IMG/VR virus record: IMGVR_UViG_3300027974_000039
Coordinates: 1 to 63,361 of that record
Origin: a virus
Reading direction: 5' to 3' (one strand)
DNA length: 63,361 nucleotides
A model generated the notes under the pieces. That model ran no database searches and was not told where the DNA came from. It worked only from the letters and a program-made list of their open reading frames with translations. This document shows positions 12,400 to 56,408 of the stretch, in pieces. A program made the translations under genes and the position numbers. Numbering within the stretch: the first letter of the stretch is position 1; each line of letters starts with the position of its first letter.

Positions 12400-15300
12400 A
12401 TGCCGCTAAACATTTTTGATGGTTCTAATTGGAACCCACTCAAAAAAATACAAATTCATGATGGTTCATCATGGAATGAATCAAAGTCGGCATTTATATG
12501 GAATGGATCTGAATGGAAATCATTACTAGATTTAAAACCAAAAAATACATCTTTACCAACATTATCTATACAAGGTAACGCATTTTTTTATTCTGCACAA
12601 GAAACAGTTATATCAACCAATGGGCAATGGGAAAATTCACCTACATCATTTGAGTATCAATGGCAAAAAGCTGCTTATCCTACATCTAATTGGTCAAATA
12701 TACTTGACAAAACATCTAGTACTTTATTTTTAAATGAAGATGAATGGGATTTAAATCAATCTTTAAAGTATGTTGGATATGCTGTTAGATGCAAAGTTAC
12801 AGCAATAAATTCTGCTGGAAAAAATTCTGAAGATGTTTACACACTTTCTAGCCCAGTAATTGCGCCAGCTCCATTAGGAGAAATTAGCGTAAATGTAGTT
12901 TCAAACGGAATTGTCGAATTTACTTGGCAAAAAGTAAAAGGCGCCAATGATTACTATATGCAATATCAAGGACCCCAAGTTCCATTTACTGAAATTATGA
13001 GCATGGTAAATAATACAGATGCTTCAAAGGGAGTATATTCTATACAAGGAACAACATGTAAATTTACTATTGATACTGGTTCAGCAGCTGGAACACTTGG
13101 AATTTTAATAAATCCAATGAATACATCAAATGCTTCTGGTATGTCATTAAGTGGATATGGTAGAAATGCATCAGTAATGGATCTAAAACCAATTAAAGCT
13201 ACAGTAACAGCAACAATGACATCGTTTAGTTGGGGCGGAAGACTAAGTTGGTCTACAAATTTAATACAACAAACTGGCTGGACAATATATAATGAAGGAC
13301 AGCTATACGCAGGATCATTCATGAATGACCCACTAGCAACGTCTTATGATATAAGTGAACTTGGTGTAGGCGGATCAAAATTTGGAGCATTTACAGTACA
13401 AATTACTGGAACAGCACCTAGATATACAGAAACTTCATGGACTTCTTCTCCATCTCTATCTATTGAATATCCAACAGTTCCATTGCCAGTTAATGAAGGT
13501 GCTCCAACAGTTTCTTTAAATGGAAGAACAGTAACTTCAACAAATGGTACATGGACAAATCAAAATTCTATCTATAATTATCTTATTGAATGGTATTCTA
13601 ATGGAGTACCAATGACGTTTGGTGTTGGACAATCAGTAGATTTTAGTACTAACACATCTTATGATAATACTCAAATATCATCTTCTGTTCAAATTTTAAC
13701 TACTGATTTAAGATTGACAGAAAAAATATATAGCAGCAATTCTGTAACAATGCTACCTTCAGCTGCACTTTGTGATACTGCAGCAAAATGTTTAACTCCA
13801 GCATGTCAAGCTTGTGTACGTACATACAACATAAATACAAATGTTGCTACTAGCGTTTGTCCATCTGGAACAATGATTCAACAAGTTTGTATAACTCCAG
13901 GAGTTTGTGACAATAGAACTACAGATGTTGGTTGTGTACCAGTAGGAACAGAATGGTATTGTACTGAATCATATAATGGCGGAGGAATTGGCAATTGTGG
14001 ATATACCTTATCTTCATTTAATAATTCTGGGTCTGGTTCTGGATATTCAAGATCATGTGTTGCTGGTGGTCCATATCCAGCATGTGGATCTACTGGTCCT
14101 GCTACTTCAGTAACTTATTATATTGGATCTTCTGGATGTGATTTTCAAAATGGCACATATTACATGCCTCCATCAGTAAGCGGTCCATTTACTAATGCAA
14201 CTATGCCTGGAGATTATGATAGCATTGGAAGTAGAACTTTTTCTAAATTTGTATATAGAGCAACATCAGCAGAAGCATTAGCAGCAGTACAACAAGCAGC
14301 TTGTACGCCAGCAACTCCACCAGCAACTCCACCAGCAACTCCACCAACAACAGTTATTTGTCAAAATGGAGTTAATTGTAATGAAGCAGCTTGTCAAACT
14401 TGTGGACCATCAAGTTATACTAGTACCAGACCATCATCTGCTTGTCCATCTGGTATAACAAACACTTATGTCTGTTATACTCCAGGCTCTTGTGACAATA
14501 TAACTACAGATACTACTTGTGTAGCACCAACAAGTATTTGGTACTGCACCGAAAGCTATAATGGTGGTGGGGTCGGCAACTGCGGATATACAACATCAGC
14601 ATTTGATAATTCTGCATCTGGATCTGGATACTCACGTTCTTGCAATACTACTGGATACATATCTTGTGGATCTACCAATCCTTCAACTCCGCCTGCTACC
14701 CCACCTTCAACTCCACCAGTCGTAGATTGTACTTCATGTTCCCCAACACAAAGTTATGATAGCACCAGACCAAACGCAGCTTGTCCTTCTGGAACAGAAA
14801 ATTATCATGTTTGTTGGACTCCAGGAAATTGTGAAAATATAATTACAGCAACTGGTTGCGTACCTGTTGCAACTCCACCAGCAACTCCACCTTCAACTCC
14901 ACCAGTCGTAGATTGTAGTTCATGTTCTCCAACACAAAGTTATTCAAGCACAAGACCAGTAGAAACTTACATCTGTCCTTCTGGAATAGAAAACACATAT
15001 GTTTGCTGGACTCCGTCAGGTTGTCCAAATATAGTTACAAGCACTGGCTGTGTTCCAGCATCCACACCACCAGCAACTCCGCCTGCTACTCCACCTGCAA
15101 CCCCACCTACTTACGATTGTAATACATGTAATAGTTATGGCGGAGCTTGTGGAACTTATGGAAATGGAACTTGGTGTATAACACCAGGATCTTGTCCAAA
15201 TATATGTCAAGGCGATCATCCAGATTATTTTGCTCCACCGTTCTTCCCACCGAGCTTCTTTGCTCCACCGTTCTTCCCACCGAGCTTCTTTGCTCCACCC

Positions 15301-15828
15301 ATGTTCTGGTTTGCTCCACCGTTCTTCCCACCGAGCTTCTTTGCTCCACCAGGATTTAAGGGCAAGTGTCTATCACCAGACTCAGTAATATTTACTAATA
15401 TTGGTTGGGTAAAAGCAAAAGACATTAAGCCTGGAGATAATATTATTACAATTAATGGAAATGATATTGACATTGAATCCGTAACTTTAAACAAAACATC
15501 TAAACCGCTCCCAACAAATGTTGAATTTTCAAATTCACAAGTTGTTTCAGTAGAAACAAAGCTTTCAACATTAATAGGATTTAATTACAGAGGAAAAGAT
15601 TACTCAATTACTCAGCCAATATTTGTAAAAACCCCAGAAGGAATTACTTATAAAAATGCTGGAGATATCAAAGTTGGAGACGCAATAATTAGCGTTGATT
15701 CTCAAGGAGAAATTTCTGAAATTATAGTAGATTCAATTCAAATTGATGATTTAGAGTCTACAGTTTATGATATTAGAACTTCACCAGAACCTTGGTTTAT
15801 TGTAAATTCAACTATAGCTATAGCTTAA
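12400..15828 (+). CDS. Giant multidomain adhesin with Cys-rich repeats, Pro/Phe repeats and C-terminal Hint domain
   Basis: The 1142-residue protein starts with short DGSxWN repeats (residues 4-45) and continues with Ig/Fn3-like domains to about 455. From 458 to about 940 it has disulfide-type repeats (patterns CPSGxxNxYVCWTPGxC and TGCVP) separated by ATPPATPP linkers. Then come FAPPFFPPSF repeats (943-985) and a Hint domain from C990 to the end. Hint block A is CLSPDSVIF, GWVKAKDIKPGD follows, and the C-terminal block is VYDIRTSPEPWFIVNS. The family normally self-cleaves or splices, but here the TxxH His and the final His-Asn are absent (SITQPIF and a terminal AIA). It is probably a receptor-binding tail component whose Hint part is a crosslinker, a crippled protease or a structural cap. 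Confidence 0.75.
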   Translation: MPLNIFDGSNWNPLKKIQIHDGSSWNESKSAFIWNGSEWKSLLDLKPKNTSLPTLSIQGNAFFYSAQETVISTNGQWENSPTSFEYQWQKAAYPTSNWSNILDKTSSTLFLNEDEWDLNQSLKYVGYAVRCKVTAINSAGKNSEDVYTLSSPVIAPAPLGEISVNVVSNGIVEFTWQKVKGANDYYMQYQGPQVPFTEIMSMVNNTDASKGVYSIQGTTCKFTIDTGSAAGTLGILINPMNTSNASGMSLSGYGRNASVMDLKPIKATVTATMTSFSWGGRLSWSTNLIQQTGWTIYNEGQLYAGSFMNDPLATSYDISELGVGGSKFGAFTVQITGTAPRYTETSWTSSPSLSIEYPTVPLPVNEGAPTVSLNGRTVTSTNGTWTNQNSIYNYLIEWYSNGVPMTFGVGQSVDFSTNTSYDNTQISSSVQILTTDLRLTEKIYSSNSVTMLPSAALCDTAAKCLTPACQACVRTYNINTNVATSVCPSGTMIQQVCITPGVCDNRTTDVGCVPVGTEWYCTESYNGGGIGNCGYTLSSFNNSGSGSGYSRSCVAGGPYPACGSTGPATSVTYYIGSSGCDFQNGTYYMPPSVSGPFTNATMPGDYDSIGSRTFSKFVYRATSAEALAAVQQAACTPATPPATPPATPPTTVICQNGVNCNEAACQTCGPSSYTSTRPSSACPSGITNTYVCYTPGSCDNITTDTTCVAPTSIWYCTESYNGGGVGNCGYTTSAFDNSASGSGYSRSCNTTGYISCGSTNPSTPPATPPSTPPVVDCTSCSPTQSYDSTRPNAACPSGTENYHVCWTPGNCENIITATGCVPVATPPATPPSTPPVVDCSSCSPTQSYSSTRPVETYICPSGIENTYVCWTPSGCPNIVTSTGCVPASTPPATPPATPPATPPTYDCNTCNSYGGACGTYGNGTWCITPGSCPNICQGDHPDYFAPPFFPPSFFAPPFFPPSFFAPPMFWFAPPFFPPSFFAPPGFKGKCLSPDSVIFTNIGWVKAKDIKPGDNIITINGNDIDIESVTLNKTSKPLPTNVEFSNSQVVSVETKLSTLIGFNYRGKDYSITQPIFVKTPEGITYKNAGDIKVGDAIISVDSQGEISEIIVDSIQIDDLESTVYDIRTSPEPWFIVNSTIAIA
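15229..15357 (+). repeat. FAPP/FFPP-coding tandem repeat
   Basis: About four copies of a roughly 30-nt unit encode FAPPFFPPSF, built from TTCTTCCCACCG (FFPP) and TTTGCTCCA (FAP) words. The array lies directly before the Hint domain. A larger relative is at 22114-22380. Confidence 0.8.
15564..15665 (+). repeat. 102-nt segment identical to one in the second Hint gene
   Basis: These 102 bases in the middle of the Hint domain are identical, base for base, to 22587-22688, while flanking Hint sequence has diverged. This indicates recent recombination or gene conversion between the two genes. Confidence 0.85.
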
Positions 15829-15834
15829 TAATTA

Positions 15835-15843
15835 TGCTATAAT
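15835..15843 (+). promoter_or_regulatory. Extended -10 promoter (TGC-TATAAT)
   Basis: TGC-TATAAT lies just after the stop of the giant adhesin gene. An AAAGGAG ribosome site and the ATG at 15865 follow. No good -35 is seen, which is typical of extended -10 promoters. Confidence 0.55.
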
Positions 15844-15864
15844 TTATAAAAAAGGAGATTAATA

Positions 15865-16095
15865 ATGCTTGATAATAAAGATTTTGACGGGGAAGTATTT
15901 ATGGTCCTTGTCGATGGAGAATATGCTGGGTGGTTTAGCGTACCTAAAGGAAATTTAGAAACAGAAATATTAAGATCTGGTTTATCTAGTAATCCAACAA
16001 TAGTAAATTTTACCGATTTGCCAATAAGCGTATCGGATTTTCCAGCACAAGCAGAGGGCTGGAAATGGGACGGTACATCATTTAAGAAGGATTAA
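15865..16095 (+). CDS. Small protein with W-rich C-terminus, tail accessory
   Basis: The 76-residue protein begins MLDNKDFDGEVFMVLVDGEY and ends with AEGWKWDGTSFKKD, a motif seen in small phage fibre-associated proteins. It is expressed from its own promoter with a strong ribosome site and is followed within 3 nt by the next gene. A structural or assembly role near the fibres is inferred from position. Confidence 0.5.
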   Translation: MLDNKDFDGEVFMVLVDGEYAGWFSVPKGNLETEILRSGLSSNPTIVNFTDLPISVSDFPAQAEGWKWDGTSFKKD

Positions 16096-16097
16096 AT

Positions 16098-16337
16098 ATG
16101 ACTTCAAGATGGCAAACAATAAAAGCAAATTTAGTTGATCCAAATGCAGTGAAACCTTGGGATATGTTAAACCCAAATACTGAATGGACAACAGATGAAA
16201 AAAAAGAAGAACGATATAGCATTTGTAAAGGATGCCCTGAATTTATATCAGCTACAACACAATGCAAGCAATGTGGCTGTATAATGAAAATTAAAACAGG
16301 AATGGAAAAAGCAGTCTGTCCTTTGGGCAAATGGTAA
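16098..16337 (+). CDS. Zinc-ribbon protein of the phage CxxC...CPLGKW type
   Basis: The 79-residue protein has a C-terminal cluster ICKGCPEF, CKQCGCIMKIK and AVCPLGKW, which fits a small zinc-binding family found beside phage tail and oxygenase genes (DUF6171-like pattern). It lies 3 nt after the previous gene and 6 nt before a 2OG oxygenase. Metal binding is well supported by the cysteines; the biological role is not known. Confidence 0.6.
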   Translation: MTSRWQTIKANLVDPNAVKPWDMLNPNTEWTTDEKKEERYSICKGCPEFISATTQCKQCGCIMKIKTGMEKAVCPLGKW

Positions 16338-16342
16338 AATAA

Positions 16343-17047
16343 ATGACTACTATCTTTGACCTTGAAAAACCAAATATTAGAATTATAAAAAACTTTTTAT
16401 CAAAAGAAGAATGTGATGAAATTTTAAAGGTTAAAGAAATGTCAGAAGTTTTATGGTCATTAGACTATGATCTTAATTATCCAAAAAAAGAAAATGTTGC
16501 GGGAAACCTTCAATACTCTGTATCTCAATGGGATGGAATGTGCATTAATATAACCCGTCCTGGATTTGCAGAAAGATATGGCATTAACCAAAAATATTAT
16601 GATTTATTGGCAGATAGAATGAAAATCCATATGGAAGAAAAATTTAATGTTACTGGATTACAAACAGAACAATATTTAATTAATAGATGGAGAATTGGAA
16701 GAGAACAGACCCCTCACCTTGATTATTTTTATGAAGAAGAACCTGACCATGACTATGAAAAACTTGCTAGACATAACATACCAAAATCCTTTTTAGATAC
16801 ATTTGGCCAGATGTTTCAAACAAAACATTATTCATCTTTGGTATACCTAAATGAAGATTACACTGGAGGCGAGCTTTATTTCCCAGAACACAACTTTATT
16901 ATAAAGCCAGAAGTTGGAACTTTAATATGTTTAAAGGGAGATGAGCACAGCTTGCATGGAGTCAAAAAAGTAGAGTCTGGAACTAGATATACGATATCAT
17001 TATTTTGGGAAGATTTAGAATATAAAAATAAAATTGGCGTCAAATAA
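16343..17047 (+). CDS. 2-oxoglutarate/Fe(II) dioxygenase, prolyl-4-hydroxylase-like
   Basis: The 234-residue protein has the triad H125-x-D127 (TPHLDYF), H205 (SLHGV) and R215 (SGTRYTISLFW). The jellyroll signature VYLNEDYTGGELYFPEH precedes the distal histidine, as in prolyl 4-hydroxylase-like enzymes. It lies between a zinc-ribbon gene and a fibre gene on the same strand. Substrate not determined; a Pro in a nearby fibre protein is a reasonable candidate. Confidence 0.88.
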   Translation: MTTIFDLEKPNIRIIKNFLSKEECDEILKVKEMSEVLWSLDYDLNYPKKENVAGNLQYSVSQWDGMCINITRPGFAERYGINQKYYDLLADRMKIHMEEKFNVTGLQTEQYLINRWRIGREQTPHLDYFYEEEPDHDYEKLARHNIPKSFLDTFGQMFQTKHYSSLVYLNEDYTGGELYFPEHNFIIKPEVGTLICLKGDEHSLHGVKKVESGTRYTISLFWEDLEYKNKIGVK

Positions 17048-17059
17048 ACTTTTGTAGGG

Positions 17060-17065
17060 TATAAT
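17060..17065 (+). promoter_or_regulatory. -10 box (TATAAT) before a fibre gene
   Basis: TATAAT preceded by GGG lies 37 nt before the TTG start at 17103, which has a GGGGGT ribosome site. No clear -35 is seen. Confidence 0.45.
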
Positions 17066-17102
17066 TATCTAAGCAACATAATCACACATAGGGGGTAGTC
17101 AA

Positions 17103-17660
17103 TTGGCCACCAATTATCCAAACAGTATCGATCAGCTTGTTAATCCAAATGGTTCAGATACATTAGCATCACCATCTCATTCCCAACAGCACACCAATGC
17201 AAATGATGCTATTGAAGCATTAGAAACAAAAGTTGGCGTAAACGGTTCAACAGATCCATCATCACTTACATACAAAGTTTCAACTATTGAAACAGTATTG
17301 ACTGATCTAGGAAATAGCACAGATACAATCCAAGAGCTTTTAGGATTGGAAGGCAACAACGACCTTGCAGTTTATGGTATTGAGAATCCTACAAACGTAG
17401 ATTCCTTTGCAAAGAACACATGGAGAACTGCTAAGTATAACATTCAGGTGACAAAGGGTTCCGATGTGTATACATCAGAGATTCTTGTTTCTCACGATGG
17501 AACAAACATAATGGTTTCAGAAGCAAACATTATCTCAAACACAAACAACAACATATTTAGTTATACCTTTGAAGAAAACTCAGGTATAATTAGTCTAAGA
17601 GTCACCCCTGTTTCTGGTTCTATCTCAGTTAGATACGTCAGAACAGCGCTTAAAGCATAA
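17103..17660 (+). CDS. Tail fibre/structural protein (TTG start)
   Basis: The 185-residue protein begins at TTG, 6-7 nt after GGGGGT. Its N-terminus (NYPNSIDQLVNPNGSDTL, then HSQQHTNANDAIEALETKVG) is a well-known phage fibre or baseplate module. The C-terminal 80 residues form a beta-rich domain (YNIQVTKGSDVYTSEILVSH) that resembles the end of the 303-residue protein at 17690. It is most likely a fibre or fibre-tip subunit. Confidence 0.7.
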   Translation: MATNYPNSIDQLVNPNGSDTLASPSHSQQHTNANDAIEALETKVGVNGSTDPSSLTYKVSTIETVLTDLGNSTDTIQELLGLEGNNDLAVYGIENPTNVDSFAKNTWRTAKYNIQVTKGSDVYTSEILVSHDGTNIMVSEANIISNTNNNIFSYTFEENSGIISLRVTPVSGSISVRYVRTALKA

Positions 17661-17689
17661 TAAAAAAAGCAACAAGAGGAGTCATATAA

Positions 17690-18601
17690 ATGGCAACAGT
17701 AACAAAAAACTTTAGAATTAAATCGGGCCTTATAGTTGAAGGTACTACAGGTACAATCAATGGCCAAAACATACTTACAGAAACAGGCGGGAATGCTTAT
17801 ATTCTCAATCTTGTTGGCGGTGCCACTCTTGTAAAATCTGTAGACGCAGGAACATTTGCAGTCGATGGTGCAGGCAATCTTACAGTAAAGCCTAATACAT
17901 TTGATGCATACGGATCCGCTTCAGCAGCTCAATCAGCAGCTATTGCAACAGCATCAGCAGACGCAACATCTAAGGCCAACGCAGCACGATCTGCAGCAGA
18001 AGCCACTGCATCAAGTGATGCAACAACAAAAGTAGCAGCAGAAGCTGCTCTTAGAGTATCAGGCGATGCAGCCTCAGTAGCGACAGCAGCAGCTGACGCA
18101 ACATCTAAGGTAGCAGCAGAAGCTGCTCTTAGAGTATCAGGCGATGCAGCCTCAGTAGCGACAGCAGCAGCTGACGCAACATCTAAGGCCAATGCAGCTC
18201 AGGCAGCAGCAGAAGTCACAGCAGCAAATGCTGTAAACGCATTAGCACAAGGAACTTCAAGATTCTCAGAAGTAAATATAAGCAACACAACTTCACAGAA
18301 AGCAACAAAGGCAACATTAACATCTGCTGGAAATGCAGTAGCTACAAGCTGGCTAAAAGCAGATTTCCCAACAGCTAAATTAATTGTTAAATTTGAAACT
18401 GCAACACATACTCAGGTTTCAGAAGTTCTTCTTTCATCAGATGCTTCAAACAACATAGCAATCACAGAGTATGCTTCAGTCGGTACAAATGGAGATCTGG
18501 GAACAACCTCAGCTTCATATGGACAAGGATACATCAATGTTGATGTTATCACAGTAAATCCAAATACTACAGTAACAGTAATGGCAACATTAATTAAGTA
18601 A
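17690..18601 (+). CDS. Tail fibre with Ala-rich coiled repeats
   Basis: The 303-residue protein starts with an N-terminal module (TKNFRIKSGLIVEGTTGTI) shared with the 120-residue protein at 18667. The middle is Ala/Ser-rich and probably coiled coil, containing two perfect copies of a 26-residue unit beginning VAAEAALRVSG (residues 115-166). The C-terminal domain (LIVKFETATHTQVSEVLLSS) resembles that of the preceding fibre gene. It is likely a trimeric fibre shaft with a receptor-facing tip. Confidence 0.7.
   Translation: MATVTKNFRIKSGLIVEGTTGTINGQNILTETGGNAYILNLVGGATLVKSVDAGTFAVDGAGNLTVKPNTFDAYGSASAAQSAAIATASADATSKANAARSAAEATASSDATTKVAAEAALRVSGDAASVATAAADATSKVAAEAALRVSGDAASVATAAADATSKANAAQAAAEVTAANAVNALAQGTSRFSEVNISNTTSQKATKATLTSAGNAVATSWLKADFPTAKLIVKFETATHTQVSEVLLSSDASNNIAITEYASVGTNGDLGTTSASYGQGYINVDVITVNPNTTVTVMATLIK
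18032..18187 (+). repeat. Perfect 78-bp tandem duplication in a fibre gene
   Basis: Two 78-nt copies (18032-18109 and 18110-18187) are identical and keep the frame, each adding 26 residues to the coiled shaft. Further degenerate copies flank them. Confidence 0.85.
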
Positions 18602-18615
18602 TTAAATAAAAGGTA

Positions 18616-18636
18616 TGGGGTCCTTCCAAAACCCCA
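18616..18636 (+). other. Stem-loop between fibre genes
   Basis: TGGGGT (18616-18621) and ACCCCA (18631-18636) can pair around a 9-nt loop. No T run follows, so it may be an mRNA processing or stability element rather than a terminator. Confidence 0.3.
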
Positions 18637-18666
18637 CAAAAACAATTAGGGGATATGTGAACTTAA

Positions 18667-19029
18667 ATGGCAACAGTAAATAAAAACTTTAAAGTAAAGA
18701 ACGGGTTAAACGTAGCAGGCACTGCAACGTTTGATTCTAATATTGTATTAGGAACAGCCCCACTATCTTTTGATGCAGCAACAAGTAGGCTACAAGTCCA
18801 GATCAATGGAACTTGGCAGCCTATAGCTTTGTATTCAGAAATTCCAAATGAGAACACAATGTTGTCATTTATGGATGTTGGACTAGCCATTGACTATAAT
18901 GGTCAGCCAACCTATATCATTCAGGCAAATGGAGTAACACCATCAGGAACAAGTAAATATGTTCTTGGAGGGGACCCTTCAACTACTGAATTTGGAATGA
19001 CTTTTGATTCAGGAGCATTAGTAGCATGA
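18667..19029 (+). CDS. Short fibre protein sharing the N-terminal module of its neighbour
   Basis: The 120-residue protein starts with TVNKNFKVKNGLNVAGTATF, clearly related to the start of the 303-residue fibre upstream. It is followed by a single beta domain (LSFDAATSRLQVQINGTWQP). It may be a truncated fibre or an alternative tip. The ribosome site is weak (AGGGG lies about 14 nt upstream). Confidence 0.6.
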   Translation: MATVNKNFKVKNGLNVAGTATFDSNIVLGTAPLSFDAATSRLQVQINGTWQPIALYSEIPNENTMLSFMDVGLAIDYNGQPTYIIQANGVTPSGTSKYVLGGDPSTTEFGMTFDSGALVA

Positions 19030-19051
19030 TGCTAAATTGTAATGGTTTAAA

Positions 19052-19060
19052 TGCTATAAT
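19052..19060 (+). promoter_or_regulatory. Extended -10 promoter (TGC-TATAAT)
   Basis: TGC-TATAAT lies 30 nt before the ATG at 19091, with an AAAGGGG ribosome site between. It drives the 803-residue fibre gene. The -35 is weak. Confidence 0.55.
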
Positions 19061-19090
19061 TTCAATATATCAAATTAAAGGGGTGGCATA

Positions 19091-21502
19091 ATGTCAACAG
19101 TAAGAATTCAAGTACGTAGAGGTTTATCTTCAGAATGGACCGCAGCAAATCCAGTATTGGCTGCAGGTGAAATGGGTGTTGAAACAAACACAAACAAATT
19201 TAAATTTGGTAATGGAACAGATGCATGGACTGCTCTTTCCTATGCGGCTTCAGATGCTGCAGCAATTGGTGAAATTTCCCAAGATGCTATCAATCAAGCA
19301 CTATCAGTAGGAGCAGGATTAACAAAGACTTATAATGATGGCGCAAATACAATTACTGTAACTGTAGATACAGATGTAGTTTCAACTAAAACATTTGCTA
19401 TTGCAGAAGCAACATCAAAAGCAGCCGCAGCACAAGCAGCAGCAGCATCCTATACAGATACTGCAGTTAGTGGAATAAATAACTCACTTACAGATTATTT
19501 AGAGGTTGCAGATAGAGGAGTAGCCAATGGAGTTGCTTCATTAAATAATTTAGGTAAGGTCCCAGAGGCACAATTAAATTTACAATCACTTTCAACAAAC
19601 GTAATTACTAGTGGTAACGTAACAGCAGAAAATGTAACAGTAAATGCTAATTTAATTGTTAATGGTACAACAACAACATTAAATACTCAAAATGTTTCTA
19701 TAGAAGATACACTTCTATATATTGCTGAAAATAATAATTCAAGCTCATTAGATTTAGGCTTTGTAGCTGGACATAACACTGGTGTATATAACCATACAGG
19801 ACTAGTAAGAGATGCTTCTGATAATAAATGGAAGCTTTTCAAAGATGTTACAGACGAACCAACAACAACAATAAATTTTGCTCAAGCTAATTTAGATAAT
19901 TTAGCATTATTTAACTTAGATTCAAATGCAATTCAGGCAGTTTCAATTACAGCAACTGGAACCGCAGCATTGCCAAATAGTTCAATTACAACCGCAAATA
20001 TTCAAAGCCAAGCAGTTACAGCAGAGAAGCTTGCAACAGATTCAGTTGAAACAGCAAAAATTAAAAATGGTGCCGTTACTGGAGCAAAATTAGAAGATAT
20101 GACAGTTACAGCAGCTAAGCTTGGAGCTTATGCAGTTACTAGCGGTAAAATTGAAGATGGTTCAGTTATTACAGGAAAGCTTGGAGCAGCATCAGTTACA
20201 GAAGATAAAATTGCAACAAATGCAATTACTGAACCTAAAATTGCAGCAGGTGCAGTTGTTGAAACAAAACTTGCATCAGGATCAGTAACATTAGCAAAGC
20301 TTGCAAGCGCTTCAGTTGATTCATCAAAGCTTGCAGCAGGATCAGTAACTTCTGCTAAAATTGCAGACAATTCAATTGTATTAGCTCACATGACAGATAA
20401 CTCTGTTGGAACTGTTGAAATTGTTGACTCAGCAATTACTGAGGCAAAACTTGCCGCAGCAGCAGTTGGCTCTACTAAAATTGCAACAGGCGCTGTATCA
20501 AATGCACATATTGCAGCGGAAGCAGCAATTGCAACATCAAAGATCTCAGGTCTTGATACAGCACTTGGATTACGGGCCCCACTTGCTTCACCAACATTTA
20601 CAGGAACAGTAGTTCTTCCAAGTACAACATCAATTGGAAATGTTTCCTCAACAGAGCTTGGATACGTAGATGGAGTTACATCTCCTATACAGACACAGCT
20701 TGCAGCAGGTACAACTGCTCTTGCAAATCACGAAGCAGATACAACAAACATTCACGGAATTTCAGATACTTCACTTCTAGCAACTACAGCAAATGTTGCT
20801 ACTGCTAAATCAGAAGCTATTACAGCAGCAGGTACTGCAGCAGATACAAAGGTATCTACAGCAGTGGCAGCACTTACAAAGTCTTCAGTAGGCCTTGCAA
20901 ATGTTGATAATACAGCCGATACAGCAAAGCCAGTATCTACAGCACAGGCTACAGCAATAGCAACTGCTAAATCAGAAGCAATTGCATCTGCAACAGCATC
21001 AGTCACAGCAGTTATAAATGGTGCACCAGCAGCATTTGATACACTTAAAGAAATTGCAGATTATATTGCAACAGATCAAAGTGCTGGTTCAGCATTAACT
21101 GCATCAGTTGCAACTAAAGCTCCTCTTGCCTCACCAACATTTACTGGAACAGTAACAGTTGGAGCAGCAGGGATTGTATTCTCTGATGGAACACAAACAC
21201 AAGCAGCAGTTCCTTCTATAACAACATTTGCATCATCTTTTGCAGCATCAGCAACACTTGCAGCAGGAGAACAAGATAAATTTGTACCAGTAGATGGAGC
21301 AGTAGTTATTACTCTTCCTGCAACAGGATATTCAACTGGACAGTCAATTGATTTCTACCAGGCTTCAGGCACAGGAGCATCATTTGCTTCAACAAACTCC
21401 GTAGTAGGAACACCAGGACTTAAGTTTAGAACTACAAACTCAGTTGTAACAGCAATGAAAACTTCAAGCGGATGGTTGGTCTTTGGAGACCTATCAGCGT
21501 AA
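19091..21502 (+). CDS. Long tail fibre with Mtd_N-like module and KIAxGAV repeats
   Basis: The 803-residue protein begins with IQVRRGLSSEWTAANPVLA and GEMGVETNTNKFKFGNG, the same N-terminal module as the fibre at 10843. Residues about 296-487 consist of 10-11-residue repeats of the type AVTxxKLAxGSV, a pattern of elongated beta-helical or triple-stranded shafts. Later parts carry LASPTFTGTV, HEADTTNIHGISDTS and a beta-rich C-terminal domain (FVPVDGAVVITLPATGYS). It is probably a main side or central fibre. Confidence 0.78.
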   Translation: MSTVRIQVRRGLSSEWTAANPVLAAGEMGVETNTNKFKFGNGTDAWTALSYAASDAAAIGEISQDAINQALSVGAGLTKTYNDGANTITVTVDTDVVSTKTFAIAEATSKAAAAQAAAASYTDTAVSGINNSLTDYLEVADRGVANGVASLNNLGKVPEAQLNLQSLSTNVITSGNVTAENVTVNANLIVNGTTTTLNTQNVSIEDTLLYIAENNNSSSLDLGFVAGHNTGVYNHTGLVRDASDNKWKLFKDVTDEPTTTINFAQANLDNLALFNLDSNAIQAVSITATGTAALPNSSITTANIQSQAVTAEKLATDSVETAKIKNGAVTGAKLEDMTVTAAKLGAYAVTSGKIEDGSVITGKLGAASVTEDKIATNAITEPKIAAGAVVETKLASGSVTLAKLASASVDSSKLAAGSVTSAKIADNSIVLAHMTDNSVGTVEIVDSAITEAKLAAAAVGSTKIATGAVSNAHIAAEAAIATSKISGLDTALGLRAPLASPTFTGTVVLPSTTSIGNVSSTELGYVDGVTSPIQTQLAAGTTALANHEADTTNIHGISDTSLLATTANVATAKSEAITAAGTAADTKVSTAVAALTKSSVGLANVDNTADTAKPVSTAQATAIATAKSEAIASATASVTAVINGAPAAFDTLKEIADYIATDQSAGSALTASVATKAPLASPTFTGTVTVGAAGIVFSDGTQTQAAVPSITTFASSFAASATLAAGEQDKFVPVDGAVVITLPATGYSTGQSIDFYQASGTGASFASTNSVVGTPGLKFRTTNSVVTAMKTSSGWLVFGDLSA

Positions 21503-21525
21503 TCGGATTAAAGGAGAATATATAA

Positions 21526-22851
21526 ATGTCAAAACAAGCAGGTAGAATGAGCCAAGGAGCTAATGACTTCTTAGCTCCGTATGCTCCAACAATTGGTACA
21601 GCAACAAATGTAGGCTCAAGTAGAGCTTTCAATAATGGACGGGCAGATGTAACTTTTACAGCTGACTCAAGAAATGCTGCAGATTCATTTACTGTTACCT
21701 CTTCTCCAGGAAACTTTCTTGGAACTGGGGCATCATCTCCAATTTCAGTTACAGGCCTTCAGTCAGGAGTTGCTTACACATTTACAGTAACCGCAACAAA
21801 TGCAGCAGGAACATCAGCTCCATCTGAAGCATCTAATTCTGTTACAGCTACAACTGTACCTCAAGATCCACAAAGTGCAACTGCAACTGCAGGAATTAAT
21901 CAAAACACTATTTCTTGGACAGCTCCAAATAATGGTGGATCAGCAATAACAAATTATTATATTGTTGGAAATGATGGAACATCTGGTAACACAGCATCTA
22001 CATCAATAGTAATTGCAGATACTGCTAATACTTCTCAATATTATAATATTTATGCAGATAACGCTAATGGTAGATCAATTGCTTCAGGTAATACAGCCAC
22101 TATTACAACTCTAGCACCGTTCTTCCCACCGTTCTTCCCACCGTTCTTCCCACCGAGCTTCTTTGCTCCACCGTTCTTCCCACCGTTCTTCCCACCGAGC
22201 TTCTTTGCTCCACCGTTCTTCCCACCGTTCTTCCCACCGAGCTTCTTTGCTCCACCGAGCTTTTTTGCTCCACCGTTCTTCCCACCGTTCTTCCCACCGA
22301 GCTTCTTTGCCCCACCAAGCTTCTTTGCTCCACCAGGATTCTGGTTTGCCCCACCAAGCTTCTTTGCTCCACCAGGATTTAAGGGCAAGTGTTTATCACC
22401 AGACTCAGTAATATTTACTGCAGATGGATGGGTACAAGCTAAAAATATTAAAGTTGGAGATGCAATATTAACTATTGACGGAAGTCATATTAATCTTGAA
22501 TCAATAACTTCAAATAAAATTTCTGAATCACTTCCAGAAAATGTTAAATTTACAGATGGTCAAGTTGTTTCTGTTACAGAAAAAACTTCAACATTAATAG
22601 GATTTAATTACAGAGGAAAAGATTACTCAATTACTCAGCCAATATTTGTAAAAACCCCAGAAGGAATTACTTATAAAAATGCTGGAGAAATTGAAATAGG
22701 AGAAATAATCCTACATGTTGATTCTGAAGGATCAGTATCAGAGGTTCCAGTAACTTCAATAGAAAAGGATGAAGCAGAATCAACTGTTTATGATGTTAGA
22801 ACATCTCCACAGCCATGGTTTATAGTTAATTCCTTTATAGCAATAGCATAA
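21526..22851 (+). CDS. Fn3 adhesin with Pro/Phe repeats and C-terminal Hint domain
   Basis: The 441-residue protein starts with a short basic N-terminus. Two fibronectin type III domains follow (about 20-112, with GLQSGVAYTFTVTATNAAG, and 115-195). A long FFPPFFPPSFFAPP array covers residues 196-286, and a Hint domain runs from C289 to the end. The Hint domain has CLSPDSVIF, GWVQAKNIKVGD, SITQPIF and VYDVRTSPQPWFIVNS; like its partner at 12400 it lacks the TxxH His and the terminal His-Asn. The shared layout of linker plus Hint suggests both adhesins are processed or attached in the same way. A strong terminator follows. Confidence 0.78.
   Translation: MSKQAGRMSQGANDFLAPYAPTIGTATNVGSSRAFNNGRADVTFTADSRNAADSFTVTSSPGNFLGTGASSPISVTGLQSGVAYTFTVTATNAAGTSAPSEASNSVTATTVPQDPQSATATAGINQNTISWTAPNNGGSAITNYYIVGNDGTSGNTASTSIVIADTANTSQYYNIYADNANGRSIASGNTATITTLAPFFPPFFPPFFPPSFFAPPFFPPFFPPSFFAPPFFPPFFPPSFFAPPSFFAPPFFPPFFPPSFFAPPSFFAPPGFWFAPPSFFAPPGFKGKCLSPDSVIFTADGWVQAKNIKVGDAILTIDGSHINLESITSNKISESLPENVKFTDGQVVSVTEKTSTLIGFNYRGKDYSITQPIFVKTPEGITYKNAGEIEIGEIILHVDSEGSVSEVPVTSIEKDEAESTVYDVRTSPQPWFIVNSFIAIA
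22114..22380 (+). repeat. Long FFPP/FAPP-coding tandem repeat
   Basis: About 265 bp of repeated TTCTTCCCACCG, GAGCTTC and TTTGCTCCA words encode an aromatic-proline chain of roughly 90 residues. Unit order varies, as expected from slippage or unequal recombination. Confidence 0.85.
22587..22688 (+). repeat. 102-nt segment identical to one in the first Hint gene
   Basis: This segment is identical to 15564-15665 and encodes the central Hint part starting STLIGFNYRGKDYSITQP. Neighbouring Hint sequence differs at many positions. Confidence 0.85.
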
Positions 22852-22932: not shown

Positions 22933-23646
22933 ATGACTACTACAAACAGCCCATATGGATTTTCATCAAAAGAAGAACTTTTCCCAGGAGTCTGGGTATA
23001 TAGAGATGTAATTAAAAAAGAATTAAATGTAATAGATAGACTTAACTCAATTGGAGAAGCATCTATCAGAGACAATGAATCAAGATTTAGTTGGACTTTT
23101 GGATTTGTTGGATACAGCGAAAAAAGACCTTCATACAGAGATTGTGAAGATATTAAAGTTGGAGAAATAAATAATCCAACAAATGAAACTCAAACGCTAG
23201 TTGCTGATTTGTGGTCTGATTTAAAAAAAGTACAAGATGTTGCAGTTCAAGATTATTGTAATAAATACAATGTAAAAATGAATTTTTGGGAAGTTATGAA
23301 TTGCATACGATATGGCAAAGGACAGCATTTTCAAGAGCATGCAGATCATGGATTTTCATATAGTGCAACAGTGTCTTTAGTAGCATATATAAATGATGAT
23401 TATGAAGGCGGTAATTTGTTTTTTCCTAAAATTGGCTTAGACATTAAGCCAAAAGCTGGAGACCTATATATTTTCCCATCTACCTATTTGTTTTCTCATA
23501 GAGCAATGCCAGTAATTGAAGGACAAAAATTTTCTATAGTTACGATGCTTGATTATAATGATCATGCCCACAAACAAGAGTTTTTTGAAGCAAGAGCCAG
23601 ATGGGTTGAAGAAGACGCAAAAACTGGCAAAAATTCTTATGCATAA
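22933..23646 (+). CDS. 2-oxoglutarate/Fe(II) dioxygenase, prolyl-4-hydroxylase-like
   Basis: The 237-residue protein has H136-x-D138 (EHADHG), H189 (FSHRA) and the core AYINDDYEGGNLFFPK. The 2-oxoglutarate-binding basic residue is K199 (EGQKFSIVT) rather than the usual Arg; some relatives use Lys. It opens the oxygenase/DUF6065 cluster with its own leaderless promoter. The next gene starts inside its last codons (shared TTATGCATAA region). Confidence 0.85.
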   Translation: MTTTNSPYGFSSKEELFPGVWVYRDVIKKELNVIDRLNSIGEASIRDNESRFSWTFGFVGYSEKRPSYRDCEDIKVGEINNPTNETQTLVADLWSDLKKVQDVAVQDYCNKYNVKMNFWEVMNCIRYGKGQHFQEHADHGFSYSATVSLVAYINDDYEGGNLFFPKIGLDIKPKAGDLYIFPSTYLFSHRAMPVIEGQKFSIVTMLDYNDHAHKQEFFEARARWVEEDAKTGKNSYA

Positions 23647-26603: not shown

Positions 26604-26604
26604 C

Positions 26605-27357: not shown

Positions 27358-27358
27358 T

Positions 27359-28029: not shown

Positions 28030-29145
28030 ATGACTAACACAGGTATAAATAACTGGCGTTTCCCAGACTATACAGACACCCCAGACGTCCCCAGAGACCT
28101 TGGAAACCTTGGTACTGACATAGCCGCATACATAGCCTCTCATCCAGGCCCACAGGGTCCTTCAGGCACCTTATCCGTAGGTACTGTAACTACTGTTAGC
28201 GCATCTACTCCAGCATCAGTTGTTAATGTTGGGACATCTTCTAATGCTATATTAAACTTAACATTACCTAGAGGAATAGATGGAATTATTGGTGGCCCAG
28301 GCCCATCAAATGTTTTAGAGATTGGCACCGTTACTAGTGGAGTTACTCCAAATGCTACCATAACTGGAACAAGCCCAACACAAACATTAAATTTAGTTTT
28401 ACCACAAGGTCCTCAAGGAGTGCAGGGTCCGCAGGGTCCGCAAGGCCCAACAACAGTAGCCGTTGGAACTACAACAACAGGTGCTGCTGGAACAAATGCT
28501 TCAGTAACAAATACTGGAACAGCAACAAATGCTGTGTTTGCATTTACAATTCCAAGAGGCGCAACTGGAGCAACTGGCGCACAGGGAATACAAGGCATAC
28601 CTGGTTCTAGCGCAACAATTGATCCAATTCCAACTACAATAAGTTTAAATATACCAATTTCATCTGGCTATGGAGTAAACTCTAATTGGTATCCATTTGC
28701 AAACAATTTGTATTCAATTGGTCAGCCAATTGATGCTGGCTCAGGAGTTACATCAAACAGATTTTGGAAAACAATATATTCTAACACTGGAACTATAAAT
28801 ACTTCTGATCAAAGATTAAAAACGGATGTATCTGTATCTACACTCGGCCTTAATTTTATAAATGATTTAAATCCAGTAAGCTATAAGTTTATTGAAGGTG
28901 GCAAAGAAATAGTTGACGGCGATCTAGTTTCTATTCCTGGATCAAGAACTCATTATGGACTTATTGCACAAGAAGTAAAAGAAGTTTTAGACGCATCTGG
29001 AGTATCTGACTTTGCTGGTTGGGTAAAGATGGACATGTCAGTAGAAGATTCAATGCAAGGACTTAGATATGATCAGTTTATTGCTCCACTTATTAAAGCA
29101 GTACAAGAGCTTACAGCGAGAGTTAAAGCCCTAGAAGAGCAGTAA
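28030..29145 (+). CDS. Collagen-like tail fibre with S74 self-cleaving chaperone domain
   Basis: The 371-residue protein has Gly-X-Y segments GPQGVQGPQGPQGPT (about 128-142) and GATGATGAQGIQGIPG (about 177-193), plus a short one near residue 41. The C-terminal Peptidase_S74 intramolecular chaperone starts near residue 258 (SDQRLKTD, then HYGLIAQEVKEVL). S74 domains trimerise the fibre and then cut themselves off at the Ser. Gly-X-Pro stretches are the classic substrate of prolyl hydroxylases, and four oxygenase genes lie directly upstream. Confidence 0.85.
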   Translation: MTNTGINNWRFPDYTDTPDVPRDLGNLGTDIAAYIASHPGPQGPSGTLSVGTVTTVSASTPASVVNVGTSSNAILNLTLPRGIDGIIGGPGPSNVLEIGTVTSGVTPNATITGTSPTQTLNLVLPQGPQGVQGPQGPQGPTTVAVGTTTTGAAGTNASVTNTGTATNAVFAFTIPRGATGATGAQGIQGIPGSSATIDPIPTTISLNIPISSGYGVNSNWYPFANNLYSIGQPIDAGSGVTSNRFWKTIYSNTGTINTSDQRLKTDVSVSTLGLNFINDLNPVSYKFIEGGKEIVDGDLVSIPGSRTHYGLIAQEVKEVLDASGVSDFAGWVKMDMSVEDSMQGLRYDQFIAPLIKAVQELTARVKALEEQ

Positions 29146-53005: not shown

Positions 53006-53892
53006 TAACAAAATTTGGTAAAAGATTTATAACATCTTATTTAGCAAGTGGACTTAATTTTAATCAAAAAGATATTGCTATTGGAATAGGGTCACAAACA
53101 CCAACTCTTAATGACTCAGACATGCAGTTTGAATTTTACAGATCAGGAGTTTTTCTTGGGAGCTCTGACATACAAACAAATACAGCAACTGGAGAAACAA
53201 CATATTCTGTAGTTTATAAAACTACATTGCCTACAGATGTTGAAGGAATTATATCAGAGATTGGAATATTCCCTACTGGATTTATTCAGAATACAGACTA
53301 CTCATCCAAATACATATCATCATTTGAAGATACTACACAGTGGGCAGATTCAACTGGAGCTCAACCAACATCAGTATCAACGCCAACTCCAAGGATAGGA
53401 TCTTCATATTTTTCTGTTACAGCAACATCAGGACAATCAAAATCATACAGTTTAAATACTGTTTTTGATCTTTCTGGATATGGAGTAGAAGATTCTATGA
53501 CTCTTGCTTTTTATCAATCAGATTTAAATTTAGATTATATTTATGCTAGATTTTATAGCTCACCAACTAACTATAAAGAAATAAGATTTCCTGGATATTC
53601 AACAATTGGTCAAAAAATTTCATTACCAATTAAATTATCTAGTTTATTTAACTCAACATTTTCGTCTACTGGATCAACAGATTTTTCTAAAATTACTACA
53701 ATAGAAATAGGAGCCAAAGCTAAATCTTCAGGAAATGCAAATGTTTTATTAGATGGATTAAGACTAAACGATGAAGATAGATACAATAGTCAATATGGTT
53801 TAATTAGTAGATCTATACTTACTACGCCTATAGTAAAAACCCTTGGAGTAGAGATGGACATTGAGTATAAGATAGACTTAGGATTTTTATAA
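53002..53892 (+). CDS. Baseplate/minor tail protein
   Basis: The 296-residue protein begins TKFGKRFITSYLASGLNF, a start seen in several phage baseplate proteins, with a central carbohydrate-binding-like beta region (SLNTVFDLSGYGVEDSMTLA, then IEIGAKAKSSGNANVLLDGL). It shares one base with the next gene. Likely part of the tail tip, with exact role unknown. Confidence 0.55.
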   Translation: MITKFGKRFITSYLASGLNFNQKDIAIGIGSQTPTLNDSDMQFEFYRSGVFLGSSDIQTNTATGETTYSVVYKTTLPTDVEGIISEIGIFPTGFIQNTDYSSKYISSFEDTTQWADSTGAQPTSVSTPTPRIGSSYFSVTATSGQSKSYSLNTVFDLSGYGVEDSMTLAFYQSDLNLDYIYARFYSSPTNYKEIRFPGYSTIGQKISLPIKLSSLFNSTFSSTGSTDFSKITTIEIGAKAKSSGNANVLLDGLRLNDEDRYNSQYGLISRSILTTPIVKTLGVEMDIEYKIDLGFL

Positions 53893-56408
53893 TGCCTGAT
53901 AAATATTCACCACCAGACTTAAGTAAAACAGCTGCAGGAGCTGCAGCAGCAGCTAATCAAACAACTGCAGATTCCTTTGTTATTAAAAAATCAGGATTAA
54001 ATGTTGTAATGAATGCTAAATATCAATTTTCATTTTCATATTTATATGCTGATCCAAATAATGCTTCAAACCTTATTCCTGGAACAAGATCTCCAAATTT
54101 TATTGTTACACTACAAACTCCTGATTTAACTCAACCAGTAACAAATTTAGTTGTTACTCCAGGACTTCTTTCTTACTCAGTAAAATGGGATTTAATAGAT
54201 AAAGCACTTACTGCTAATAAATGGCTAATAGATATACAAATATATGAAAGTTTAACTGGAGCATTTGCAGGAGAAGAATATTTAGTTTGGGACGGTAATG
54301 GAAGTTCTGCAACGATACTTGTTTCAAATACAGCAAACAGATGGATACGTGTAGATACAAGAGATCAAGATTATAGAAAGAAAAGTGCATTTTCTGGTAT
54401 GTTTAAAGCAACAGATCCAATTGTTGTAGACACGGTTGGTCCAGATAATGTTACTTCAGTTAGTTCTACTAGCGGTATTGATACAACTGGATATTTGGGA
54501 TTTAATGCATATGCAAATATATCTTGGCCAGCAGTAACAGGCAAAGGTATAAGAGGATATAGAATTAGATTTAGTAATGATAATGGAGCTACTTATTCCT
54601 ATGTTGATTCTCCAGGCACTGGAACAACTTATAAACTTGCAGGGCTTGCTATTGGATCAACATATAAAATAGCAGTTGCAACATATGATGAATACAATAA
54701 TACATCATCCTCATATGTATCTGGATCAGATGTTACAGTTACGGGAACACCATCTGTATCAAATTATATTTCTGGAGGTCCATTTCAATTTGGCGTAGGT
54801 GTAGGATCTGTTTCTACAAATAAAGGATTATATTTTGACGCTAGCAACTACTGGTATGTTAATGCTACCAATAGCGCAAGACTTAAGGTTGGCGGAGCAT
54901 CAAGCAACTACCTTTTGTGGGATGGCTCAACTTTTGCGATAGACGGAAATATTACTGCAAGAGGCGGAACGTTTAGCGGAAACATATTTATGTCTACTTC
55001 TGGTGCATCAATTTATAATGGAACTATTGATGCCACTACTGGTAATTTAACTGGCAATGGGTTTGCATTAAATTCAACAGGACTTAAAGTAGCTAATGGA
55101 ACTAACTCAGTAACAATCGCAGCAGCAACTGGAACTATTACTGCAAATGCAGGATCAATTGGTGGATGGACTTTAAGCGGTAATACCCTTTCTAAGAATA
55201 ATGTTATATTAGACAGTACTGGTCAAATACAAGTTGGTTCATCTGCAACATCTAGCATTTATTTAAACTCATCTAATGCTAGCTTTCTTATGTGGGCTGG
55301 CAATAATACTCCAGATTCAAATGCAAAATTTAGAGTAGGAACAGACGGAACTTTATATGCTAGAAATGCAGTGTTTGGAGCAGGAACATCTGTAGAAGGC
55401 TATGCAACTTCTGGACAATTAAGTGCGGTTGATACAAAAGCTACTAATGCAGCATCATCTGCATCAACAGCATCAACAAATGCATCTACTGCATTAACTA
55501 ATGCACAAACTGCAGCAACAGATGCCAATACAGCAAAAGTTGCAGCTGCCGCAGCAAAAGCAATTGCAGACGCAGCTCTTCCATCAACAAGTTTTGATCG
55601 AGCTGCTATTGTTGCAAAAATAAGCACTAGTACAGATACAACAAGAATTGATGGCGGATTATTAAAAACAGGAACTGTTTCAGCCGATGCCGTAGTAACA
55701 GATTTTATTTCTGCATTTTCAATTAATGCTAGCAAGATTACTACGGGAACTATATCTGGAATTAAAGGCATATTCACAGATGGAGAAGTTGGCGGGTTTA
55801 CATTAGGTAATGCAGACTTAACTGCAAGTACTTCAAAACTTCCCAGAATAATTTTTGGAAACAAAGTATTACTTGGCTATGATTCAAGTAACGGAGTATA
55901 CACATTAAATGCTGGAAATCCATATACAGATTCGGGTGGCTCATTCTATGTAAATACAAACTCAAACGTATTTAGATTTGCAGCAGATTCAGCATCAAGA
56001 TCTTATGCAGCTGAAATTAGAAATACTGTAAGGGCAAGAACCTTTAGATATATAGTAGAGTCTGTACTAGATAGCTCGTCTAGAAGATTCAAAGAAAATA
56101 TTGTTGATGTTCCAAAACATTACTATGAAAGAATATTAAAGGTTAAACCTACTTTTTTTACTTATATAAATAATCACCCAGAGACACAACCTGAAGTATG
56201 GGGAAATCATGGAATGGGTCCAATAGTTGAAGATTTGGAAGAGGCAGGACTAGGAATATTTGTTGAAAGAAATTTAAATGGACAACCAACCTCACTTAGA
56301 AATCCACAAAATATGGCATTTTTACTTATACCAGTAGTTAGAGATCTTAAAGCCCAGGTTGATACGCTTGAGGCAAGGCTAATAGAATTGGAGGGGAATA
56401 ATGTTTAA
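53892..56408 (+). CDS. Tail fibre/receptor-binding protein with Fn3 and S74 domains
   Basis: The 838-residue protein has an N-terminal attachment region, a Fn3-like domain at about 185-290 (IRGYRIRFSNDNGATYSYVD), and beta repeats with a pectin-lyase-like look (GTIDATTGNLTGNGFALN). An Ala/Thr coiled segment lies at about 515-565. A C-terminal Peptidase_S74 chaperone starts near residue 728 (SSRRFKENI, then MGPIVEDLEEAGLG). It lies downstream of the hub and is a good candidate for the tail-tip receptor-binding protein. It overlaps the next gene by 8 nt. Confidence 0.78.
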   Translation: MPDKYSPPDLSKTAAGAAAAANQTTADSFVIKKSGLNVVMNAKYQFSFSYLYADPNNASNLIPGTRSPNFIVTLQTPDLTQPVTNLVVTPGLLSYSVKWDLIDKALTANKWLIDIQIYESLTGAFAGEEYLVWDGNGSSATILVSNTANRWIRVDTRDQDYRKKSAFSGMFKATDPIVVDTVGPDNVTSVSSTSGIDTTGYLGFNAYANISWPAVTGKGIRGYRIRFSNDNGATYSYVDSPGTGTTYKLAGLAIGSTYKIAVATYDEYNNTSSSYVSGSDVTVTGTPSVSNYISGGPFQFGVGVGSVSTNKGLYFDASNYWYVNATNSARLKVGGASSNYLLWDGSTFAIDGNITARGGTFSGNIFMSTSGASIYNGTIDATTGNLTGNGFALNSTGLKVANGTNSVTIAAATGTITANAGSIGGWTLSGNTLSKNNVILDSTGQIQVGSSATSSIYLNSSNASFLMWAGNNTPDSNAKFRVGTDGTLYARNAVFGAGTSVEGYATSGQLSAVDTKATNAASSASTASTNASTALTNAQTAATDANTAKVAAAAAKAIADAALPSTSFDRAAIVAKISTSTDTTRIDGGLLKTGTVSADAVVTDFISAFSINASKITTGTISGIKGIFTDGEVGGFTLGNADLTASTSKLPRIIFGNKVLLGYDSSNGVYTLNAGNPYTDSGGSFYVNTNSNVFRFAADSASRSYAAEIRNTVRARTFRYIVESVLDSSSRRFKENIVDVPKHYYERILKVKPTFFTYINNHPETQPEVWGNHGMGPIVEDLEEAGLGIFVERNLNGQPTSLRNPQNMAFLLIPVVRDLKAQVDTLEARLIELEGNNV

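What the first reader, a model, noticed from the sequence alone, without database searches (positions are those of the whole stretch)
12400..22851. Two tail adhesins end in Hint domains without the standard catalytic His and terminal Asn
Both the 1142-residue and 441-residue proteins end in a Hint-type domain that starts with Cys (C990, C289) and keeps the CLSPDSVI and VYDxRTSP blocks. The TxxH His and the C-terminal His-Asn needed for classical splicing are missing (SITQPIF, then a terminal AIA). No C-extein follows. This could be a Hedgehog-like thioester device that links the fibre to a nucleophile, a slow self-cleaving cap, or a purely structural end.
Basis: partly seen in the sequence, partly recalled or inferred. 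Interest (0 to 1): 0.8.

Follow-up and report, generated by a model that had tools for sequence, protein, structure and literature searches.

The report
Intein-like caps ending phage adhesins
Two adhesin-like proteins of an uncultured, apparently aquatic phage end in a domain with the fold of self-cutting inteins and Hedgehog proteins; it keeps the attacking cysteine but has lost other catalytic residues, and it sits where related phage proteins carry either nothing or a known self-cutting domain, so it is probably a self-removing or covalently reactive cap, although no cutting has been shown.

Summary
Both proteins (1142 and 441 aa) end in a Hint domain. AlphaFold2 gives pLDDT 92.8, and all 50 best PDB matches listed are inteins, BIL domains or Hedgehog. 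Cys1 (C990, C289) is present, block-B His is Gln, the terminal His-Asn is Ile-Ala, and nothing follows.

It is not an isolated degenerate pair. I assembled 83 distinct complete relatives from uncultured viral contigs. Cys1 is present in 82 of 83. The His position holds only Gln (49), His (32) or Glu (2), and switches H/Q at least six times. Fifty relatives keep the terminal Asn, 49 as His-Asn, mostly followed by a single Lys. The window clade lost this once. C289 is the only Cys in the 441-aa protein.

The domain follows an aromatic-proline stalk. In the window clade the stalk ends in [F/V]K in 32 of 32 proteins, just before the Hint. Twenty-seven Hint-less stalk proteins stop exactly at FK. 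One phage has FK directly followed by a Peptidase_S74 self-cleaving chaperone whose catalytic Ser is the next residue.

I infer that the Hint is an alternative self-removing (or thioester-forming) C-terminal module. Cleavage is not shown. A purely structural cap remains the main rival.

The parts
12400..15828 (+). 1142-aa stalk protein: N-terminal region shared with other phage adhesins, Cys-rich middle (46 Cys outside the Hint), aromatic-Pro stalk, C-terminal Hint
   Evidence: ORF; Cys count, stalk; N-terminal homologues
15229..15360 (+). aromatic-proline stalk FAPPFFPP...FAPPGFK of the 1142-aa protein (residues 944-987)
15367..15825 (+). Hint domain 1, C990-A1142 (Cys1 codon 15367-15369; block-B Gln1072 codon 15613-15615)
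   Evidence: homologous to the modelled domain (71% identity)
21526..22851 (+). 441-aa stalk protein: FN3 domains, aromatic-Pro stalk, C-terminal Hint; C289 is its only cysteine
   Evidence: fn3 E 2.8e-9; single Cys
22117..22383 (+). aromatic-proline stalk PFFPPFFPP...FAPPGFK of the 441-aa protein (residues 198-286)
22390..22848 (+). Hint domain 2, C289-A441 (block-B Gln371 codon 22636-22638)
   Evidence: AlphaFold2 pLDDT 92.8, pTM 0.84; Foldseek to inteins, BIL, Hog; alignment A2
16343..17047 (+). 2OG-Fe(II) oxygenase gene downstream of Hint protein 1 (context, possibly stalk modification)
   Evidence: Pfam PF13640 E 3.1e-8; enriched downstream of Hint genes
22933..23646 (+). 2OG-Fe(II) oxygenase gene immediately downstream of Hint protein 2 (context)
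   Evidence: Pfam PF13640 E 2e-13
28030..29145 (+). collagen-like fibre protein with C-terminal Peptidase_S74 self-cleaving chaperone (functional comparator in the same phage)
   Evidence: Pfam PF13884 E 1.2e-13
53892..56408 (+). fibre protein with Peptidase_S74 domain (comparator)
   Evidence: Pfam PF13884 E 3.1e-5, above cut-off

Best explanation
Each protein is an FN3 or Cys-rich adhesin with an aromatic-proline stalk and a C-terminal Hint module. Shown: the Hint fold, near-invariant Cys1 and block-B Ser/Thr, restriction of the block-B position to Gln/His/Glu, loss of His-Asn and of any C-extein in this clade, and a module boundary at the '[F/V]K' end of the stalk. Inferred: after the stalk folds or assembles, Cys1 attacks the preceding (usually Lys) carbonyl by an N-S acyl shift. 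The Gln side chain, and perhaps the clade-invariant Arg after VYDx, would replace the catalytic His. The thioester is then hydrolysed, or passed to a nucleophile, so the Hint leaves and the stalk is exposed ending ...PPGFKGK. No Asn cyclisation is needed because nothing follows the domain. It would thus be a functional counterpart of the S74 self-cleaving chaperones found on other phage fibres, working like Hedgehog or BIL N-terminal cleavage only.
For: Hint fold. Cys1 in 82 of 83 distinct domains; block-B position Q 49, H 32, E 2 and nothing else; the block-B Thr position is always S or T. H/Q changes at least 6 times on a tree built without those columns, while loss of terminal Asn occurs at the base of the window clade (32 rows, SH-aLRT 98). 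Nineteen Gln-type relatives keep His-Asn, so Gln is not simply a mark of decay. C289 is the only Cys in the 441-aa protein, and most short homologues likewise have no other Cys. The stalk ends in K (32/32) preceded by F (30/32) just before the Hint; 27 of 87 Hint-less stalk proteins end exactly in FK, against 5 of 1895 non-stalk ORFs (Fisher p about 5e-34). In L103 the same stalk reads PPAFK then S126-D-V-R-D-K131, a Pfam Peptidase_S74 domain starting at S126; S74/ICA domains cut just before that Ser, using a Ser-Lys dyad five residues apart (PMC8326128). Inteins lacking block-B His can remain active, and bulky -1 residues rescue the first step (PMC6333167; PMC7664689); the -1 residue here is Lys or Arg in 28 of the 33 domains without terminal Asn.
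Against: No cleavage or thioester has been observed. Block-B His, the most conserved intein residue, is missing in 30 of 32 members of the clade, and Gln has not been shown to replace it. The -1 residue is Gly or Ala in four clade members, where the bulky-side-chain rescue would not apply. FK may only mark where a module was joined on, and cleavage at Cys1 would leave extra residues after FK. The S74 comparison rests on one clear fusion (L103).
Confidence: 0.47

Rival explanations
1. Purely structural cap: an intein-derived fold that lost catalysis and now folds, trimerises or shields the stalk end, or binds a receptor. Cys1 is kept for packing or for an inter-chain disulfide.
For: In the window clade block-B His, block-F His and the terminal His-Asn are all gone. 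Many invariant columns are probably structural (G, F-N, V-Y, W). One relative (L175) has lost Cys1 as well.
Against: Cys1 in 82 of 83 down to about 35% identity, S/T always at the Thr position, and only H/Q/E at the His position. This is hard to explain by packing alone. His-Asn is kept in many Gln-type relatives.
Confidence: 0.28
2. Hedgehog-like covalent transfer: the Cys1 thioester is resolved by an amine or hydroxyl on the host surface or on another phage protein, linking the stalk covalently to it.
For: Same retained parts as Hedgehog autoprocessing (Cys1, Hint fold, no C-extein, no Asn). Many records (18 of 32) carry exactly two Hint adhesins, which could react with a common partner.
Against: No ligand-binding extension comparable to the sterol-recognition region follows the Hint. 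There is no evidence for a nucleophile, and block-B His is missing.
Confidence: 0.12
3. Internal Cys1-Gln thioester on a Hint scaffold: the conserved Gln beside Cys1 forms a side-chain thioester, as in bacterial thioester adhesins and complement C3, making the tip a covalent harpoon.
For: The conserved pair of a lone Cys and a Gln in an adhesin-like protein. Cys-Gln thioesters self-form in bacterial adhesins and bind hosts covalently (PMC4450167). The block-B residue contacts the Cys1 scissile bond in inteins.
Against: Two clade members (L036, L037) have His in place of Gln with the rest intact. Gln-type relatives that keep His-Asn suggest an intein-like role. Geometry could not be measured because no coordinates were available, and known thioester domains have a different fold.
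Confidence: 0.06

Closest known systems
Bacterial intein-like (BIL) domains (e.g. 2lwy, Clostridium thermocellum; 6y75, Tetrahymena BUBL1 BIL2)
   Same: Best structural neighbours (6y75 E 5.7e-8, 2lwy E 2.7e-7) and best sequence-profile match (2lwy). Part of non-intein proteins, no nucleophilic +1 residue; BIL domains give mostly cleaved products (PMC7664689).
   Different: The window clade lacks block-B His and terminal His-Asn, and has no C-extein. The HN-K relatives are much closer to BIL.
Hedgehog autoprocessing (Hog/Hint) domain, 1at0
   Same: C-terminal Hint with Cys1 and no Asn or C-extein chemistry; TM-score 0.71 on the query.
   Different: No TxxH His and no sterol-recognition extension; sits after a phage stalk.
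Class 1 inteins, including rare ones without block-B His (Tko CDC21-1 group)
   Same: Fold, Cys1, blocks A, B and F recognisable; natural loss of block-B His is tolerated in some.
   Different: No terminal Asn, no +1 nucleophile, no C-extein, no homing endonuclease; cannot splice.
Peptidase_S74 / intramolecular chaperone autocleavage domains of phage fibres
   Same: Occupies the same place: directly after the FK end of the same stalk in L103; C-terminal module of phage fibre proteins; self-cleaves at its own N-terminus in known members.
   Different: Unrelated fold and a Ser-Lys dyad instead of Cys; an analogy of position and proposed role, not homology.
UniProt/BFVD 'Hint domain containing protein' of uncultured Caudovirales phages (e.g. 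A0A6J7WKC1)
   Same: Closest predicted viral structures (E 2.3e-10, TM 0.84), some with FN3 or PASTA names like the adhesins here.
   Different: Automatic annotations only; no description of the family, the H/Q switching or the module exchange was found in the paper library.

Membership tests
Hint fold superfamily | horseshoe-shaped all-beta Hint fold | tested here: met
   AlphaFold2 pLDDT 92.8; the 50 listed PDB matches are all Hint proteins
Hint fold superfamily | curated Pfam Hint models above cut-off (Intein_splicing, Hint_2, PT-HINT, Hint) | tested here: not met
   All below cut-off (e.g. Intein_splicing 25.9 against 35.8 bits); only PDZ passes, and the fold contradicts it. The models are insensitive here: the BIL-like relatives also fall below
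Class 1 intein | Cys/Ser/Thr at position 1 | tested here: met
   C990/C289; 82 of 83 relatives
Class 1 intein | C-terminal (His-)Asn/Gln and +1 nucleophile with C-extein | tested here: not met
   ends in AIA at the Asn position, nothing follows
BIL domain | Cys1, TxxH, terminal His-Asn, non-nucleophilic +1 | tested here: not met
   Window: SxxQ and no His-Asn. Relatives such as L086 (TETH ... THNK) meet it
Hedgehog Hog domain | Cys1 and block-B TxxH His | tested here: not met
   Cys met, His is Gln in the window; two clade members (L036, L037) keep SxxH
Hedgehog Hog domain | sterol-recognition region after the Hint | tested here: not met
   protein ends with the last Hint strand
Self-cleaving Hint domain (any) | cleavage before Cys1 | not testable with these tools
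   needs expressed protein
Thioester adhesin domain (Cys-Gln) | thioester domain fold and Cys-Gln bond | tested here: not met
   fold is Hint; the bond itself is not testable here
PDZ domain (Pfam PF00595 passes its cut-off) | PDZ fold | tested here: not met
   27.5 against 23.2 bits, but no PDZ structure among the 50 listed matches

The most novel reading that the evidence does not exclude
A family of aquatic phage adhesins uses a Hint-fold domain with a His-to-Gln active site as a covalent device. Cys1, alone or with the conserved Gln, forms a thioester that links the stalk to the host surface or to a partner protein. This would be a phage 'chemical harpoon' built on an intein scaffold.
Probability: 0.13. 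Interest if true: 0.92.

Novelty: new variant of a known kind. Interest (0 to 1): 0.62.

Why it matters
Hint domains are best known as inteins and in Hedgehog; the phage examples met in the papers read were inteins inside terminase or ribonucleotide reductase. Here a large, apparently undescribed group of uncultured aquatic phages carries Hint as the terminal module of stalked adhesins, interchangeable with nothing or with the S74 self-cleaving chaperone. The natural series (His with HN-K, Gln with HN-K, Gln with IA, His with IA) is a ready-made set for asking what an intein active site can lose and still work, and whether Gln can replace the block-B His. If the chemistry is alive, the modules would be natural counterparts of engineered Asn-to-Ala cleavage inteins, or covalent adhesion devices.

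Tried and rejected
PDZ: Pfam reports PDZ above its cut-off, but structure search gives only Hint, so rejected. Chance resemblance to Hint: rejected. Cultured phages: no match for two probes and one weak 30% Staphylococcus phage match for the third, so no useful relative. Cellular genomes: one scan of GTDB contigs confirmed no relative. Gln as a mark of simple decay: not favoured, because Gln-type relatives keep His-Asn and the site never holds anything but Q, H or E. Class 3 intein (block-F Cys): not followed, as HN-K relatives have a conserved Cys a few residues further on, but the characteristic Trp is absent in the alignment. Measuring the Cys-Gln distance in the model: not possible, no coordinates are returned. 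Literature on phage C-terminal Hint adhesins: none found in the open library; two papers mention only inteins in terminase or reductase.

Full report
1. The observation. The two ORFs are present at the stated coordinates. Their last 157 residues are 71% identical. Numbering is exact: C990/C289, Q1072/Q371, D1124/D423, R1126/R425, A1142/A441. The end AIA aligns with the last three residues of the canonical block G, so the final Ala stands where an intein has its terminal Asn, and no residue follows.

2. The fold. An alignment of 20 family members gave an AlphaFold2 model with mean pLDDT 92.8 and pTM 0.84. The 50 PDB matches listed are all Hint proteins: BIL2 of Tetrahymena (E 5.7e-8), the C. 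thermocellum BIL domain 2lwy, DnaB, RecA and other inteins, and Hedgehog 1at0 (E 2.3e-6). A sequence profile also finds 2lwy (E 6.5e-6) and several inteins, and aligns the window's Q-P with the H-P of block B. Pfam alone would mislead: every Hint model stays below its cut-off, while PDZ passes.

3. The family. Relatives come only from IMG/VR contigs. Cultured phages gave nothing useful, and the GTDB genome scan confirmed none. I assembled 83 distinct complete domains. Cys1 is present in 82. The block-B His position is Q in 49, H in 32, E in 2. The block-B Thr position is always S or T. The terminal Asn is kept in 50 (49 as His-Asn), and 45 proteins end with a single Lys after it. The window clade (32 domains) ends in IA, IS, IT or VS with nothing after. 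On a tree built without the block-B stretch, Cys1 and the final residues, the window clade is one group (SH-aLRT 98), terminal Asn changes twice in all, and H/Q changes at least six times. Some deep placements have long branches. L086 and its relatives are complete BIL-like domains (TETH, HN, then K); L036 and L037 have the window's end but SxxH. In the 441-aa protein, and in most short homologues, C289 is the only cysteine. So Cys1 is under strong constraint, and the His-to-Gln exchange is specific and repeated rather than random decay.

4. The place of the module. The domain follows an aromatic-proline stalk (FFPP, FFAPP). Among 150 distinct stalk proteins, 63 end in Hint, 27 stop exactly at FK, and others end in short Cys-rich tails, aromatic tails or FN3. 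Only 5 of 1895 non-stalk ORFs end in FK (Fisher p about 5e-34). In the window clade a K preceded by F (30/32) or V closes the stalk just before the Hint. In L103 the stalk PPAFK runs directly into a Peptidase_S74 domain whose first residue is Ser126, with Lys131 five residues on. Published S74/ICA domains cut just before that Ser with a Ser-Lys dyad at this spacing (PMC8326128), so the mature L103 stalk should end in FK. The same adhesin bodies occur with and without Hint: L082 carries orthologues of both window proteins (52% and 57% identity over their N-terminal parts), and neither has a Hint. In the 32 Hint-bearing records searched, 18 have two Hint domains and none has more; 20 records with Hint-less stalks have none. 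Most of these records are probably incomplete.

5. How it probably works. Shown: fold, conserved residues, module boundary, exchange with other ends. Inferred: Cys1 attacks the preceding carbonyl, the Hint is released, and the stalk is left ending ...PPGFKGK, much like the S74 product and the Hint-less proteins. Lost block-B His is a real difficulty, but several inteins work without it (PMC7664689), and in the Ssp DnaB intein bulky -1 residues restored the first step (PMC6333167); here -1 is mostly Lys or Arg. The terminal Asn is not needed for N-terminal cleavage: mutating the C-terminal junction enforces that side reaction (PMC6333167). A structural cap stays at 0.28, covalent transfer at 0.12, an internal Cys-Gln thioester at 0.06.

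6. Known or new. It is a member of the Hint superfamily, but by the tests made here not an intein, a BIL domain or a Hog domain. Phage proteins with similar structures are already named 'Hint domain containing' automatically. I found no paper in the library that describes C-terminal Hint modules of phage adhesins, their H/Q switching, or their exchange with S74.

Noticed in passing
window 16343-17047, 22933-23646, 25081-28009, 3657-4505(-): Seven 2OG-Fe(II) oxygenase genes. Across distinct Hint tails such a gene lies within 2.5 kb downstream in 58 of 83, but upstream in 7 of 37 (Fisher p 3e-7). They might hydroxylate prolines of the aromatic-Pro stalk; FK-ending stalk genes show the same neighbour (11 of 12).
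   Followed up: partly
L057-L176 (e.g. L059, L083, L093, L109): The aromatic-proline stalk (PPFFPP repeats) is a widespread, apparently undescribed C-terminal element of uncultured phage proteins, often ending exactly in FK.
   Followed up: partly
L086, L177-L256: Relatives with intact His-Asn followed by only one Lys: near-canonical BIL-like domains whose C-extein is a single residue; they also carry a second conserved Cys in block F (SC[DE]P).
   Followed up: partly
L052 (199-666): Block-B stretch reads SDHQP: a His one residue before the conserved Gln.
   Followed up: no
window 1893-3389: Tryptophan halogenase homologue (Pfam E 5e-104) in the phage.
   Followed up: no
window 16098-16337: Small Cys-rich protein (DUF6171, E 2.8e-6) between Hint gene 1 and the oxygenase.
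   Followed up: no
window 23549-25025: Two adjacent, similar proteins of about 230-260 aa (repeated gene) after the second Hint gene and its oxygenase.
   Followed up: no
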